A stretch of DNA of 64,000 bases from Nitrospira sp. (lineage in GTDB: Bacteria > Nitrospirota > Nitrospiria > Nitrospirales > Nitrospiraceae): positions 310,001 through 374,000 of the forward strand of contig CP126122.1 of assembly GCA_030123565.1 (NCBI GenBank), given 5' to 3'. The notes beneath the pieces are model-generated. The model was not told where the DNA came from. It made no database searches and saw only the letters and a list, made by a program, of their open reading frames with translations. A program made the position numbers and the translations under genes. Positions 55,122 through 63,689 of the stretch are shown here, one piece after another. How positions within the stretch are numbered: position 1 is the stretch's first letter; each line of letters opens with the position of its first letter.

Positions 55122-55250
55122 ATGCATCTGCAAACACTCCAGCGAAAAATGCTCATTTTCCTCTCGCTCGGTATCATCGCGTGGGGAAGCATGGACATAA
55201 GTTCTCGCGTCGAGGAGGCGCAGTCCCTCCTCTTCTCTCGGGCTCCCTAG
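55122..55250 (+). CDS. small exported peptide, 42 residues, ending at the IS5 junction
   Basis: ATG 55122 with GGAGGG upstream encodes MHLQTLQRKMLIFLSLGIIA followed by WGSMDISSRVEEAQSLLFSR. The hydrophobic segment looks like an uncleaved signal or single membrane helix. It stops at a TAG that lies inside the CTAG target copied by the insertion sequence. A SHOCT segment begins right after the insertion in another frame, so the peptide may be the front half of one frameshifted SHOCT-domain gene. Confidence 0.45.
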   Translation: MHLQTLQRKMLIFLSLGIIAWGSMDISSRVEEAQSLLFSRAP

Positions 55251-56428
55251 GGAAGGTCTGATTTATTCTCCGCTCGCGATGTGCTACGGGTAGCGCAGCA
55301 CTGATGAGGAGGCGCCCCCATGCAGCAATCGACGTTTGCCGAGGTCACGTTTGAACAGTATCGCAAGCCCACCCGCCGGGAGCGATTTCTCGACGAGATG
55401 AACCGCGTGGTGCCGTGGGCGGAACTGGCTGCCGTGATTGCGCCGGTCTATCCCAAGGCCGAGGGCCCTGGGCGTCCGCCGGTGGGCGTCGAACGCATGC
55501 TGCGCCTCCATTGTCTGCAACAGTGGTTCAACCTGTCGGACCCGGCGGTGGAGGAGGCGTTGTACGACTCGCGCGCCATGCGGCAGTTCGTGGGCATTGA
55601 TCTCGGCCGCGAGCCCGTGCCGGATGAGACAACGATCTGCAAATTTCGGCATCTGCTGGAAGCCCACCAGGTGGGCGAACAACTCTTTGCGCGGATCGGA
55701 GCGTATCTGGCCGCCCAAGGCATGACGGTCAGCCGGGGCACCATCGTGGATGCGACCATTATTGCGGCGCCCAGTTCGACGAAGAATCGCCAGAAGGAGC
55801 GGGATCCAGAGATGCATCAGACGAAGAAAGGGAACCAGTGGTACTTCGGCATGAAGGCCCATCTTGGGGTGGACAGCCGGACCAAGCTGATCCATTCGGT
55901 GGCCGCCACGGCGGCGAATGTGCATGACAGTCAGGTGTTGCCCAAGCTGCTGCATGGACAGGAGACCCGCGTGTGGGGGGACGCGGCCTACAGCGGGCAA
56001 CGCGACGTGATCCGGCACCACGCCCCCGGTGCCCAGAACTTCATCCAGACGAAAGCCCATCGGCATCGGCCCCTGAGCGAGGCGGAGCGCGCCCGCAATC
56101 GAACGAAGTCGAGGGTCCGCGCCAAAGTCGAGCATGTGTTCTTGGTGATCAAGCGAATCTTTGGATGGTCCAAAGTCCGCTACCGCGGGTTGGCGAAGAA
56201 TACCCACTGGCTGTTCATCAGCTGCGGCTTGGCGAATCTGTACGTGGCTCGACGGCGCCTGTTGGTGGGGGCCTAGCGGGCGGATGTGCGAACGAGGGAG
56301 CGGGCGCCAGATGATGGGCGAACCCCGACAACGACGCTCCCGGACTATCGCAGTTCAATACGGATAGCCCTTGTTGACCACCCCAGAAACAGATTTCTCA
56401 GCGCAAACGTGAATTAATCAGACGTTCC
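55251..56428. mobile_element. complete IS5-type insertion sequence, 1178 bp
   Basis: Ends are GGAAGGTCTGATTTATTC on the left (55251) and GGAACGTCTGATTAATTC, read on the opposite strand, on the right (56428); 16 of 18 bases match. CTAG is duplicated outside both ends (55247-55250 and 56429-56432), the usual IS5 target. One intact transposase is inside. The element split or adjoined a SHOCT-domain gene upstream of the ATPase operon. Confidence 0.88.
55320..56276 (+). CDS. IS5-family transposase
   Basis: 318 residues starting MQQSTFAEVTFEQYRKPTRR. It has the IS5 N-terminal domain (RPPVGVERMLRLHCLQQWFN, DLGREPVPDETTICKFRHLL), then the DDE core. The first Asp is in IVDATIIAAPSSTKN, the second in WGDAAYSGQ, and the Glu in RVRAKVEHVFLVIKRIFG. 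No frameshift. GAGGAGGCGCC precedes the ATG. The enzyme moves the 1178-bp element. Confidence 0.9.
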   Translation: MQQSTFAEVTFEQYRKPTRRERFLDEMNRVVPWAELAAVIAPVYPKAEGPGRPPVGVERMLRLHCLQQWFNLSDPAVEEALYDSRAMRQFVGIDLGREPVPDETTICKFRHLLEAHQVGEQLFARIGAYLAAQGMTVSRGTIVDATIIAAPSSTKNRQKERDPEMHQTKKGNQWYFGMKAHLGVDSRTKLIHSVAATAANVHDSQVLPKLLHGQETRVWGDAAYSGQRDVIRHHAPGAQNFIQTKAHRHRPLSEAERARNRTKSRVRAKVEHVFLVIKRIFGWSKVRYRGLAKNTHWLFISCGLANLYVARRRLLVGA

Positions 56429-58348
<1,920 letters not shown>

Positions 58349-58352
<4 letters not shown>

Positions 58353-58618
58353 ATAACGACGACGAGCTGAAGCGGCGCGTATCGAAACAGGTCGCTCGCA
58401 TGCAACAGGCCGACAAGGACCGGCCGACATTGCTTGCACAAACGGCCTACCTCGGCACGCTCGGGCTTCTCCTCGTCGTGCCAGTCATCCTGGGGGCCTA
58501 TCTCGGCCGTTGGCTGGACGGCCTTGTGGAAGGGTATTCGCTCCGATGGACCCTCAGCTTGATCATGCTGGGAGTGGGTGTCGGAGCGATGAACGTCTAC
58601 CTTTTTATCAAGGAATAA
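58349..58618 (+). CDS. atpQ: AtpQ/AtpI-like small membrane subunit
   Basis: 89 residues with two membrane helices (LGTLGLLLVVPVILGAYLG and LSLIMLGVGVGAMNVYLFIK) joined by GRWLDGLVEG. The GxYLGxxLD pattern is that of the ATPase_gene1/AtpI-like family, thought to assist c-ring assembly or magnesium transport. It overlaps the epsilon gene by four bases and ends four bases before atpB. The AtpR subunit that normally follows AtpQ in N-ATPase operons is not present. Confidence 0.75.
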
Positions 58619-58621
58619 GCC

Positions 58622-59308
58622 ATGCACGGATTGGATGCAGCCGGAACCGCTTTTCAGATCGGACCGATCCAGATCACGCAGTCGGTCGTGGTCACGTGGG
58701 GGATCATGCTGGCGCTCGTCGTCTTTTCATGGGCTGCTACTCGCCGGTTTCGCCTTGAGCCGGGCCCTCTGCAAGCGGTGCTGGAAGGTGCCATGGGAGC
58801 CATCGATGATGCCATCCGTTCCGTGCTGCCCGGTCATTCAGAACGAATCCTCCCCTTCATCGCCACATTATGGATTTTCATCGTCCTAGCCAATCTCATC
58901 GGGCTCATCCCCGGCATTCATGCGCCGACAGGCGATCTATCGGTGACGGCGGCGCTCGCCGCCTTGGTCTTTTTCTCAGTGCATTGGTTCGGCGTCCGCA
59001 TCGAAGGGATCAAGCACTACCTTCTTCACTACCTGGCGCCGTCGCCGCTCCTGCTTCCCTTTCATCTGATTAGCGAGATTACGCGCACCCTCACGTTGGC
59101 CGTCCGTCTGTTCGGGAACATGATGAGCCTGGAAATGGCGGCACTGTTGGTGTTGCTGGTGGCCGGATTTCTGGCTCCCATTCCCCTCTTGATGCTCCAT
59201 ATCGTCGAAGCACTGATCCAGGCCTATATTTTCGGCATGCTGGCGTTGATTTATCTCGCCGGCGCGATCCAAACACGAGCACTCCAATCACCATCAGGAA
59301 AAGGATGA
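58622..59308 (+). CDS. atpB: N-type ATPase a subunit
   Basis: 228 residues with five or six helices. The conserved stator Arg lies in LTLAVRLFGNMMSLEMAALL, the helix that contacts the c ring. Preceding motifs are PFIATLWIFIVLANLIGLIP and the C-terminal HIVEALIQAYIFGMLALIYL with Glu and Gln of the half-channel. It forms the ion path with the c ring. It directly follows atpQ. Confidence 0.9.
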   Translation: MHGLDAAGTAFQIGPIQITQSVVVTWGIMLALVVFSWAATRRFRLEPGPLQAVLEGAMGAIDDAIRSVLPGHSERILPFIATLWIFIVLANLIGLIPGIHAPTGDLSVTAALAALVFFSVHWFGVRIEGIKHYLLHYLAPSPLLLPFHLISEITRTLTLAVRLFGNMMSLEMAALLVLLVAGFLAPIPLLMLHIVEALIQAYIFGMLALIYLAGAIQTRALQSPSGKG

Positions 59309-59311
59309 CCT

Positions 59312-59578
59312 ATGCGAGACATGACCTGGTTCATCATCACGTCTACCGTCATCGCCGCGGTGGCGATCGCAATCGGCACCCTGGGACCGGCCATTGCCAT
59401 GGGACGAGCCATCACGCAAGCCCTGGAAGCCCTGGCGCGACAGCCGGAAGCGGAAAAGTCGATCACTCGCACCTTGTTTATCGGCTTGGCCATGATCGAG
59501 TCGCTGGCCATCTACTGTTTGGTGGTCGTTCTGATCATTCTCTTCAGAAATCCGCTGCTGGAATATCTGCTGAAATGA
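59312..59578 (+). CDS. atpE: N-type ATPase c subunit with partial Na+-site
   Basis: 88 residues forming two helices joined by ARQPEA. Helix two carries the ion-binding Glu63 with Ser64 and Tyr68 (AMIESLAIY), the Na+-type pattern. Helix one reads [11 protein letters not shown]: Met30 stands where Na+ rings have Gln or Glu (Gln32 of Ilyobacter). So one of the usual Na+ ligands is missing. Ion specificity (Na+ or H+) cannot be predicted from sequence alone. It lies between atpB and atpF; 61 bp follow before atpF. Confidence 0.9.
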
Positions 59579-59639
59579 TCAAGGCTAAACCGGCAAGTTC
59601 GGGCCGATCCCACCTGCCATAAACAGAAAGAGGCTACGC

Positions 59640-60404
59640 GTGGAATTGGATTGGACAACGTTCGTGCTGGAAATCATCAACTTTCTGGTTCTGGTCTGGG
59701 TCCTCACCCGCCTGCTCTATACACCCGTTCTGAACGTCGTCGCCCAGCGGAAAGCCGATATCCAGAAAACCCTCTCCGACGCGGACACGCTGCGCCAGGA
59801 AGCTCAAACTCTGCGGGAACAGTATGAACATCGGCAGTCGGATTGGAACCGGGAGAAAGAAACGGCTCGAAACCGGATGTTGGAAGAAGTGACCGCCGAG
59901 AAAGCTCATCTCTTGGCTGGGCTCCAGGCTTCGTTGGAACAGGAGCGCGAAAAATCCAGGGCATTGGAAGAACGACGATTGACTGATCTGACACGCCAGG
60001 TGGAAGACGCGGCTATGACCCAGGGCGGGCTGTTCGCCGCTCGGCTGCTGGCACGGCTCGCGAGTCCCGAACTCGAAGCCACGCTGGTGAAGGTTGCGAT
60101 CGAAGATCTGCGCCGGCTTCCTGAAGAACGACGGCAGGCCATCCGAACGGCTTGTACGAAGGGTGACGCGCCGGTCATCGTCAGCAGTGCCTATGTCCTG
60201 AGCCCGCCTCAACGGGAATCTCTGTTGGAAGCGGTCCAGTCGTTACTCGGTCAGTCCATTTTCTGTGAGTGGCGGGAAGATCCCCACTTGCTGGCCGGCC
60301 TGCGTCTCAGCCTCGGTCCGTGGATGCTGGGAGCAAACCTGCAAGACGAATTGAAATTTTTCTCGGAAACATTGCGACCTGTGAGCCCCACCCATGCTTC
60401 GTAA
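59640..60404 (+). CDS. atpF: N-type ATPase b subunit fused to delta-like domain
   Basis: 254 residues from GTG 59640. An N-terminal membrane helix ([20 protein letters not shown]) is followed by a long coiled coil of Glu, Arg and Gln residues. The C-terminal region ([36 protein letters not shown]) resembles the delta/OSCP domain. N-ATPases lack a separate delta gene and fuse it here. Its end overlaps the alpha gene by 11 bases. It is the stator stalk. Confidence 0.85.
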
Positions 60405-61866
60405 CTCACTCCTCGCCAGTCAAGCCGCTTGGCTCAACGAGTACCGACTGGGTTTACGCCTTCTGGAACAAGGACATGTCCGGTCCGTCGGCGACGGTAT
60501 TGTCTGGATTGAGGGACTCCCCTCCGCCGCCATAGAAGAAGTCCTGTTGCTCGAAGATGGCAGTCGTGCGCTGGTGTTCCACCTGGCCAAGGAGCGGCTC
60601 GGGGCCATCCTTTTGACGCAAACAGCCCGGTTGACTGCGGGAACCATCGCGCATCTGTCCGGTCAAGGTCTGGGGCTTCCTGTTGGAGACACGCTGATCG
60701 GACGCGTGATCAATCCGCTGGGTGATCCGCTGGATGGGCATCCTCCGTTGGATTCTCCGAACCAACGTGAAATGTTCAGCCCCTCGCCGCCGATCATTGC
60801 CCGGGACTTTGTCCATCGTCCCTTGTACACGGGGAGTAAGGTTGTCGACACCCTCATCCCCATTGCGAAAGGACAACGACAGCTGGTCATCGGAGATAAT
60901 GGAATCGGCAAACGCGCCTTCGCTTTGGATACGGTCATCAACCAGCGAGGGAAAGAGGTGCGTTGTGTCTATGTCTTGATCGGTCAAAAGCGGTCGAGCA
61001 TTGTCAATACGATTGAGACGCTCAAGGCCTATGGCGCAATGGACTACACGGTCGTCCTTGCCGCGGAGGCGACCGCGCTGCCCGGACTGAAATACCTGGC
61101 GCCCTTCGCGGGATGCGCCGTGGCCGAAGCGTGGATGTGGCAGGGCAAAGACACGCTCGTGGTCTACGACGACCTCACCACCCACGCGCAAACCTATCGG
61201 GAACTGTCGTTGCTGTTGCGTCGCCCTCCCGGCCGTGAGGCCTATCCGGGCGATATCTTCTTTCTTCATTCGCGCTTGCTCGAACGTTCCACCTGTCTGG
61301 CGCCGAAATTAGGAGGCGGCAGCATGACCGCCCTCCCCGTCGTCGAGACCACACAAGGAGAAATCGCTACCTATATTCCGACGAACCTGATTTCCATTAC
61401 TGACGGGCAGATTTACTTTGACGCACGTCTTTTTGCGGCAGGAATTGTTCCCGCTATTGATGTCACCAAATCAGTCTCTCGGATCGGTGGCAAGGGACAG
61501 CATCCGCGGATCAAGGAACAGGCCGGGCGCATGAAACTGGACTATCTTCAGTTTCTGGAACTGGAGGTGTTCACCCGCTTCGGAGCCCGACTGGAAGTCT
61601 CCATGGAGGTCAAAATCAAACGCGGCCGCCTGCTGCGTGAAATCTTGAAACAAGGCCGGCTGTCTCCGTTACCCATTGAGTTTCAGCTCGCATGGCTGAT
61701 GGGATTCAATCGCGGCTACTTCGACGATGTGTCGCCGGAGAAGATTGGGCCGCTGCTGGAACGCATCGCGTTGCGCATCCCCACGAGTCGTCTCACCCTC
61801 GACCAGCAGGACGAGCAATGGGCTGAGGCCGTGAAGAACTGGAGTCAGGAGACGCCCCCCCCATGA
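60394..61866 (+). CDS. atpA: N-type ATPase alpha subunit with altered Walker A
   Basis: 490 residues. It has the usual alpha order: [36 protein letters not shown], the P-loop region, and the Arg-finger segment [20 protein letters not shown]. The P-loop reads GDNGIGKR at residues 167-174; most alpha subunits have GDRQTGKT, so the Thr that binds magnesium is replaced by Arg174. The noncatalytic nucleotide site is therefore likely defective. It overlaps atpF and atpG, giving a tightly coupled operon. Confidence 0.92.
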
Positions 61867-62714
61867 GCCGGCGCCGAGAATTTGAAGATCATCTGCATGC
61901 CTTGCGCGACATCAGCGGGATTCTTCGTGCCATGAAAAACCTTGCGCTCATGGAAACCCAAAAGTTGACCCGCTTCCTGGCAACACAGCGCCGAGTGGTA
62001 GAGAGCATCGAGACCGCCGCGGAGGACTTCTTCACCTCCTATCCCCAGGCCGCGCGAGAATTGGGCAGGGGGATACCGGTATGGTTGGTGATCGGCTCCG
62101 AACGGGGCTTTTGCGGAGATTACAACGAACGTCTGGTGGCGGGCGTGGAAGAGCATCTCCGTCGGCGTTCACAGCGCCATCCGCTCCTGATTATTATCGG
62201 ACAGAAGCTCAGCGCGAAATTGGAACACGATCGGCGCGTCGCGGGGTCTCTGCGCGGTCCGACTGTTGCTGAGGAGGTTCCTGCCGCCTTGATCAACCTG
62301 ATGGACAAGCTGAGAGCGTTGCAGGCAAGCCAGAAACCAGGAGTTCGATTGGAATTCACGATCGCTCACCAAAGTCCCGCCTCCGAAGGAGACCAGATCC
62401 ACATGCATGAGCCGATGAAGCGCCCCGGACACCGTCCGGCCCGTTTTGCATACCCGTCTCTTTTGAACCTCGATCCTCTTGCGTTTGCGACGGATCTCAT
62501 CGACCAGCACTTGTTCAGCCTCTTACACGAAGTGTTCTATAGCTCATTGATGGCGGAGAACCTGCGCCGCTTTCGACATATGGACCAGGCCATCCAACGG
62601 TTGGAGAAAGACATGGCCGACCTTGTCCTCACACGTAACTCCTTGCGGCAGGAGGAAATCACCGAAGAAATCGAGATCATCCTGCTGAGCGCGGAGGCGC
62701 TGAGGCAGCCGTGA
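61863..62714 (+). CDS. atpG: N-type ATPase gamma subunit
   Basis: 283 residues from ATG 61863 overlapping atpA by four bases. The two long helices at the N-terminus ([20 protein letters not shown]) and C-terminus ([37 protein letters not shown]) form the rotor coiled coil. The globular part has [18 protein letters not shown]. It is the last gene of the operon. A decayed IS630-type transposase begins within about 15 bases of its stop. Confidence 0.9.
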
Positions 62715-62717
62715 CGC

Positions 62718-63689
62718 GCGCGGCTGCTCTTGACCCTGGCAACGGGCAACGCCGCTGGTGCGGTGGCCGCAGAGTTTCGCACGCGCCCCTCCACGGTGAG
62801 TAAATTGAAAACCCAAATCAGCCCAGGGGCTCGTCGGCTTGCAGGATGCTGCCCGTCTCGGCCAGTCGGTGATCTATGGCCCATCGACGGAGACCCGATT
62901 CTGGCGATGTTGGATGAGGCGCCCCCGGCTGGTTATGTCCGCTGGAACGACCGGCTGTTGGCGAAGGCCCTGGGCATGGTCAGCCGGCATCACATTTGGC
63001 GCGTGTTGCGCGCGCATGGGATCAGCCTGGACCGCCGTCGCTCCTGGTGCCTCAGCACGGATCCGACATTTGCGCGGAAGGCGGTCGACATTGTGCGCCT
63101 GTATCTGAACTCGCCGGAGTACGCCCTTGTACTGTGCGTCGATGAGAAGCCAGCCATCTGGAGCAGGCGCAAGGTTGGCTGAAACTGCTCACCGGCAAGG
63201 CCCTCACCGGTTTCAACCATGCGGACATGCGCCATGGGACGACTATCCTCTTTGCCGCCTTAGAAGTTGCCACCCGCCTAGTCCGGCGGGTCACTACCGA
63301 CGACGGGTCGAGTTTCTGGACTTCATGAATCGCGTCGTCACGGCGTATCCGGGTAAAGAACTCCACGTGATCGTGGACAATTTCCATACACACAAGCCGA
63401 AACAGGACCGCTGGCTGGCCCGGCATCCGCAGGTACCCTTCCACTTCACGCCGACCACGCCTCCTGGCTCAATCAGGTGGAAGGTCTGTTCAGCATCTTG
63501 AAGCGGGCGGCCCTCAAGGGCGCCCGCTTCCGGCCGGTCCAGGACGTGCGGAACCGGATCGATGCCCTCGTGGCGAATACGGCGTGCCGAATCAATACCT
63601 CCAATGGTTGTCTTTTTTTGCGCTTGTGCGACGCGGCGGCTTATCAGGCCACGCTTCTCTTCCTTGTCGGGAGAAGTGCTGGTCATTGA
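62718..63689 (+). pseudogene. IS630-type transposase, truncated and frameshifted
   Basis: Homology starts near 62718 as RARLLLTLATGN and runs through AAEFRTRPSTVSKLK, then shifts frame into ARRLAGCCPSRPVGDLWPID and FARKAVDIVRLYLNSPEYAL with VLCVDEKP, the first catalytic Asp. A shift near 63165 changes to WLKLLTGKALTGFNHADMRH, another near 63290 leads to RRRVEFLDFMNRVVTAYPGK and HVIVDNFHTHK with the second Asp. A last shift around 63460 gives GSIRWKV versus WLNQVEGLFSILKRAALKGA with the Glu. At least three shifts show a dead copy. No ends were found. Confidence 0.8.

What the first reader, a model, noticed from the sequence alone, without database searches (positions are those of the whole stretch)
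59312..59578. c subunit keeps Glu-Ser-Tyr but has Met at the helix-1 ligand position
By alignment on the ARQPEA loop, Met30 replaces Gln32 of the Ilyobacter Na+ ring, where N-ATPases often have Gln or Glu. Glu63, Ser64 and Tyr68 are retained. A mixed site could bind H+ or Na+ with different affinity and stoichiometry, so the ion coupling is an open question.
Basis: partly seen in the sequence, partly recalled or inferred. Interest (0 to 1): 0.7.

Follow-up and report, generated by a model that had tools for sequence, protein, structure and literature searches.

The report
Proton-type rotor of a spare ATPase
A nitrite-oxidiser-like bacterium carries a second, 'N-type' rotary ATPase whose rotor lacks two of the polar groups that hold sodium, so it probably moves protons; this is an ordinary, widespread variant already described in this family in 2025.

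Summary
The 88-aa c subunit has Met30 where the Ilyobacter Na+ ring has Gln32, and it keeps Glu63, Ser64 and Tyr68 (gapless alignment). The operon also lacks atpR (atpQ and atpB are 3 bases apart; no AtpR over the family cut-off in the genome).
These traits are not an oddity of this window. All 102 sampled c subunits of the M/ESL type share Met, Glu-Ser-Leu and Tyr, and none of the 99 with readable gene order has atpR. On a subunit-a tree they form one clade, spanning several phyla. Other N-ATPases carry Glu or Gln with EST (Na+ set) or with ETM. The ETM type includes Burkholderia; the B. pseudomallei ring was measured as H+ selective. Met also arose separately, with atpR present, in three genomes of the Geobacter phylum sample.
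A 2025 Nitrospirales paper (PMC12342949) already reports that most Nitrospiraceae N-ATPases lack Glu32, have Leu for Thr67, lack atpR and probably move H+. Verdict: real, already known, most likely a proton pump. The coupling ion has not been measured for any member I found.

The parts
59312..59578 (+). atpE: N-type c subunit, 88 aa, site M30 / M61-I-E63-S64-L65-A-I-Y68
59399..59401 (+). Met30 codon (Ilyobacter Gln32 position)
59498..59506 (+). Glu63-Ser64-Leu65 codons (Ilyobacter Glu65-Ser66-Thr67)
58622..59308 (+). atpB: subunit a, PRK13420 (356.6 bits, cut-off 272)
58349..58618 (+). atpQ: AtpZ/AtpI-like subunit (PF09527), ending 3 bases before atpB; no atpR between them
57906..58352 (+). 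atpC: epsilon subunit (true start may be later; ORF overlaps atpD)
56545..57945 (+). atpD: beta subunit; best match is the alternate F1F0 beta model TIGR03305 (below its cut-off)
59640..60404 (+). atpF: b subunit with C-terminal OSCP/delta-like part; the operon has no separate delta gene
60394..61866 (+). atpA: alpha subunit (PRK13343 over cut-off)
61863..62714 (+). atpG: gamma subunit

Best explanation
This is the rotor subunit of a second, AtpR-less N-type F1Fo-ATPase in a Nitrospiraceae genome that also has an ordinary F-type ATP synthase. Shown: the operon order atpDCQBEFAG with no atpR; the site M30-E63-S64-L65-Y68; membership of one clade whose sampled members all share this site and, where readable, lack atpR. 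Inferred: Glu63 is the ion carrier. In the resting state it is protonated and locked by hydrogen bonds to Ser64 and Tyr68, in a pocket made hydrophobic by Met30 and Leu65. Without the side-chain oxygen of Gln/Glu32 and the water-holding hydroxyl of Thr67, Na+ is bound poorly, so the ring is H+ selective at physiological Na+ and pH. The complex most likely works as an ATP-driven proton pump, or a reversible one, beside the main ATP synthase.
For: Gapless alignment gives Met30 and Leu65 in place of Gln32 and Thr67. In the F. nucleatum Na+ ring, Glu32 Oe1 touches Na+ at 2.35 A and Thr67 Og holds the bound water at 2.69 A; the same paper says H+ sites are simpler and mainly hydrophobic (PMC3692424). 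The H+-coupled Spirulina ring 2WIE has Leu at the Leu65 position in a gapless alignment (its ion coupling is from general knowledge). All 102 M/ESL sequences keep M30, E63, S64, L65 and Y68 without exception and form one clade on a subunit-a tree (99 SH-aLRT; 100/97.8). The closest other large clade (E/Q-ETM, joined at SH-aLRT 88) holds Burkholderia-type c subunits, and the B. pseudomallei ring was measured as predominantly H+ selective (PMC5376962). The same conclusion is published for Nitrospiraceae (PMC12342949). No NqrB (TIGR01937) match was found in the genome. A separate F-type beta/alpha pair (4.14 Mb) and F-type a/c genes (3.22 Mb) are present.
Against: Glu63, Ser64, Tyr68 and the backbone carbonyl at Met61 remain. 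PMC10532065 argues that Thr67 is irrelevant and cites modelling in which three polar ligands sufficed for Na+ coupling of the Methanosarcina acetivorans ATP synthase. No member of the clade has been assayed in any paper I found. The strict conservation of Ser64 is not explained by H+ binding alone. The absence of NqrB does not exclude other Na+ pumps.
Confidence: 0.78

Rival explanations
1. The site is promiscuous: it carries H+ at neutral or low pH, but Na+ (or Li+) competes at high Na+ and alkaline pH through Glu63, Ser64, the Met61 carbonyl and water, so coupling depends on conditions.
For: Ser64 and Tyr68 are kept in 102 of 102 M/ESL sequences. PMC10532065 cites work on M. acetivorans in which fewer ligands gave a concurrently Na+ and H+ coupled enzyme, with selectivity falling smoothly as ligands are lost.
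Against: Both the helix-1 oxygen and the water-anchoring Thr are gone. In B. pseudomallei, with one more carboxylate, 15 mM Na+ lowered NCD-4 labelling only to 40%, similar to Li+ and Cs+, and the authors call it predominantly H+ selective.
Confidence: 0.17
2. It is a Na+-translocating N-ATPase as the subfamily is usually described, with Met30 simply tolerated.
For: N-ATPases were predicted to be predominantly Na+ selective (as quoted in PMC5376962); an ATPase of Aphanothece halophytica pumps Na+ (PMC2928168).
Against: The sampled E-EST N-ATPases keep Glu32 and Thr67 (49 of 49) and form a different clade. The window lacks both. Published re-analysis predicts H+.
Confidence: 0.04
3. The operon is decaying: atpR is lost and the Met is a degenerative change (missing subunits were suggested to mark non-functional N-ATPases in Nitrosococcus halophilus, PMC4154653).
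For: Loss of atpR; flanking insertion sequences; an unusual alpha P-loop GDNGIGKR.
Against: All eight genes of the operon are open and full length. The site and the atpR-less order are conserved across phyla over long branches, which is purifying selection, not decay.
Confidence: 0.01

Closest known systems
Nitrospiraceae N-type ATPases without E32 and atpR (PMC12342949, 2025)
   Same: Same family of hosts, loss of helix-1 Glu, Leu for Thr67, no atpR, gene set atpGAFEBQCD, predicted H+
   Different: No difference found; the paper names the missing Glu, not Met, in the passage read
Burkholderia pseudomallei N-ATPase c17 ring (PMC5376962)
   Same: N-type operon in addition to F-type; H+ measured; helix-1 packing motif AxGxAxAxG, against TxGxAxAxG here
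   Different: Glu30, Thr62, Met63 site instead of Met30, Ser64, Leu65; atpR present; neighbouring clade, not the same clade
E-EST N-ATPases (Nitrospira lineage IV, Picosynechococcus PCC 7002 and others)
   Same: Operon plan DCQ-BEFAG and fused b/delta
   Different: Glu32-EST-Tyr Na+ ligand set, QQPD loop and atpR present
Ilyobacter tartaricus Na+ c11 ring (PDB 1YCE)
   Same: Glu, Ser and Tyr of the site
   Different: Gln32 and Thr67 replaced by Met30 and Leu65

Membership tests
N-ATPase (N-type F1Fo-ATPase) | Present in addition to an ordinary F- or A-type ATPase | tested here: met
   F-type beta (52% identical) and alpha at 4.14 Mb, F-type a/c at 3.22 Mb in the same genome
N-ATPase (N-type F1Fo-ATPase) | Gene order atpD-C-Q-(R)-B-E-F-A-G, beta and epsilon first | tested here: met
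   met except for atpR
N-ATPase (N-type F1Fo-ATPase) | No separate delta gene in the operon; long C-terminal extension on b | tested here: met
   254-aa b with OSCP/delta-like C-terminus
N-ATPase (N-type F1Fo-ATPase) | atpR (PF12966) present between atpQ and atpB | tested here: not met
   atpQ to atpB gap 3 bases; no PF12966 match over cut-off in the genome. The literature still files atpR-less operons as N-type (PMC12342949, PMC4154653)
N-ATPase (N-type F1Fo-ATPase) | Closer by sequence to N-type than to F-type subunits | tested here: met
   c best to PRK13468 and TIGR03322 (TIGR03322 below its cut-off); b best to TIGR03321; beta best to TIGR03305 (several below cut-off); subunit a falls inside the N-type tree apart from F-type outgroups
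Na+-coupled c ring | Gln/Glu32, Glu65, Ser66, Thr67, Tyr70 set | tested here: not met
   Met30 and Leu65 replace the first and the fourth
H+-coupled c ring | Measured H+ selectivity | not testable with these tools
   needs protein
AtpR-less M/ESL N-ATPase clade | Met30 + ESL + Tyr68, no atpR, one clade on subunit a | tested here: met

The most novel reading that the evidence does not exclude
AtpR-less, Met30/Leu65 N-ATPases are a distinct, cross-phylum clade that settled as dedicated proton pumps (possibly with large rings, given the alanine-rich packing motif), and in some genomes they work beside a Na+-type N-ATPase with atpR, giving one cell separate ATP-driven H+ and Na+ pumps.
Probability: 0.45. 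Interest if true: 0.45.

Novelty: already known. Interest (0 to 1): 0.25.

Why it matters
N-ATPases are routinely annotated as Na+ pumps and read as signs of salt adaptation. This case shows that the label cannot be applied from the operon alone: the clade with Met30, Leu65 and no atpR should be read as proton-type until measured. The clade spans several phyla and includes nitrifiers, iron and sulfur oxidisers and Legionella, so the correction affects many genome papers.

Tried and rejected
(1) A unique Met: rejected; it is invariant in the clade. (2) Sampling bias of the nearest-80 search: checked by family-based sampling in four phyla, which recovers all types. (3) Missed atpR through a weak model: rejected by gene spacing; model-normalised distances between atpQ and atpB separate the R+ and R- sets. 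(4) Met30 causing or requiring loss of AtpR: not supported; three Met genomes in the Geobacter phylum sample (M/ESI) keep AtpR with its invariant Arg, a single Met clade is rejected (AU p=1e-5), and too few independent events (2-3) exist to test the link. (5) AtpR marking Na+ coupling: not supported, since Burkholderia-type operons, of the kind measured as H+, have AtpR. (7) Ring modelling was not attempted; single-chain prediction cannot build the inter-subunit site. (8) Searches for an experimental study of the clade found none.

Full report
What is there. The reading frame at 59312-59578 is an intact 88-aa c subunit in a complete operon: atpD, atpC, atpQ, atpB, atpE, atpF (b fused to a delta-like tail), atpA and atpG, 56545-62714. 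The host is a 4.62-Mb single-contig genome. Its nearest c-subunit relatives are labelled Nitrospira (89% for L003), and the genome search places the other Nitrospirota genomes by kinship to it. It also has an ordinary F-type set: beta 52% identical and alpha at 4.14 Mb, a and c at 3.22 Mb.

Check of the observation. Met30 sits at Gln32; Glu63, Ser64 and Tyr68 are kept. In the F. nucleatum Na+ ring, Glu32 Oe1 lies 2.35 A from Na+ and Thr67 Og holds the bound water at 2.69 A (PMC3692424). So two of the polar groups around the ion are replaced by hydrophobic side chains. The H+-coupled Spirulina ring (2WIE) also has Leu at this position.

The operon lacks atpR. atpQ ends at 58618 and atpB starts at 58622. 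The best PF12966 hit in the whole genome is 13.7 bits, below the 26-bit cut-off.

How general it is. All 80 nearest loci in GTDB species genomes carry Met and ESL. That search favours close relatives, so I sampled by the c-subunit family model in four phyla and from plasmids. Three main types emerged. Type 1 is Glu30 with EST, a QQPD loop and usually atpR. Type 2 is Glu or Gln with ETM/ETT, an RQPE loop and atpR in most. Type 3 is Met30 with ESL, an RQPE loop and no atpR in any of the 99 with readable gene order. Within type 3, Met30, Glu63, Ser64, Leu65 and Tyr68 are invariant in 102 of 102 rows, which include the window's own sequence.

Rows called R- among types 1 and 2 were inspected. Several have an AtpR-sized gene that the model missed: L171 and L176 are annotated so, and L132 has the matching spacing. 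L160 (E/EST), L161 (Q/ESL) and the haloarchaeal L174 (Q/ESQ) look truly without it by spacing.

In the Nitrospirota sample 15 loci, the window's own included, are of type 3. In Pseudomonadota there are three, one of which is the sampling centre. None is among the loaded Desulfobacterota loci, although the centre genome G020 itself has one. One is in the Acidobacteriota sample, also the centre.

Tree. A subunit-a tree, made without the c subunit, puts all type-3 rows in one clade (SH-aLRT 99; 100/97.8 in a careful tree). Type 2 is the closest other large group (support 88). Three Met/ESI rows from the phylum of Geobacter sp. OR-1 have AtpR and nest within type 1. Forcing all Met rows together is rejected (AU p=1.06e-5). 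Met therefore arose at least twice, once without loss of AtpR. Only two or three independent events separate hydrophobic helix-1 residues from AtpR presence, so a functional link between them cannot be tested. AtpR's second-helix Arg is invariant in 72 of 72 rows, whatever the c-subunit residue.

Function. The most likely reading is a proton-coupled ring. The B. pseudomallei N-ATPase ring has a second Glu, yet it was found predominantly H+ selective and forms c17 (PMC5376962). The window keeps a similar packing motif, TxGxAxAxG against AxGxAxAxG, which hints at a large ring but proves nothing. The contrary view is that Thr67 is dispensable and that three ligands can suffice for Na+ coupling (PMC10532065), so a promiscuous site remains possible. 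I found no assay of any clade member.

Prior knowledge. PMC12342949 (ISME J 2025) states that most Nitrospiraceae N-type ATPases lack E32, have Leu for Thr67, lack atpR and may translocate H+. PMC4154653 noted N. halophilus N-ATPases without atpR and suggested degeneracy. What is added here is the breadth of the clade, its monophyly on an independent subunit, the second origin of Met with AtpR kept, and genomes that hold both types: G377, with L124 and L136, and G006 and G018, whose type-3 loci L008 and L036 coexist with the AtpR-bearing E-EST loci L085 and L084.

Scores. The finding is accurate but describes a known, common variant; interest 0.25.

Noticed in passing
55250-56400: IS5-type transposase element (DDE_Tnp_1) directly upstream of the operon; an identical 1151-base copy lies at 1792500-1793650 of the genome and an 86-89% copy at 2093235-2094215. 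It may separate the operon from its former promoter.
   Followed up: partly
62730-63689: Broken IS630-like transposase (DDE_3 match) directly downstream of atpG, so the operon is flanked by insertion sequences on both sides.
   Followed up: partly
60394-61866: Alpha subunit P-loop reads GDNGIGKR; type-3 relatives mostly have GDNGxGKS or GDAGTGKS instead of GDRQTGKT. Among the commonest of 43 type-3 P-loops, GKR appears once.
   Followed up: partly
56430-56533: Short open stretch reading [34 protein letters not shown] just before atpD, resembling a SHOCT domain fragment by eye; may be a gene cut by the upstream IS.
   Followed up: no
L174:4501-5049: Haloarchaeon Salinigranum marinum plasmid carries an N-type operon without atpR and with a tandem double c subunit (183 aa); its first hairpin reads Q / ESQALY.
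   Followed up: partly
L113, L115, L192, L198: Nitrospirota and Geobacter-phylum-sample N-type c subunits with Leu at the helix-1 position (ESI/ESIV) and no AtpR found; a further hydrophobic variant.
   Followed up: partly
L194, L196, L197: c subunits from the Geobacter phylum sample with Met at the same position and ESI, but with no N-type atpQ or atpB found within the 5-kb stretch, perhaps ordinary F-type genes.
   Followed up: no
L185:2043-3272: Acaryochloris plasmid N-ATPase operon has a cation:proton antiporter gene inserted between atpQ and atpR.
   Followed up: no
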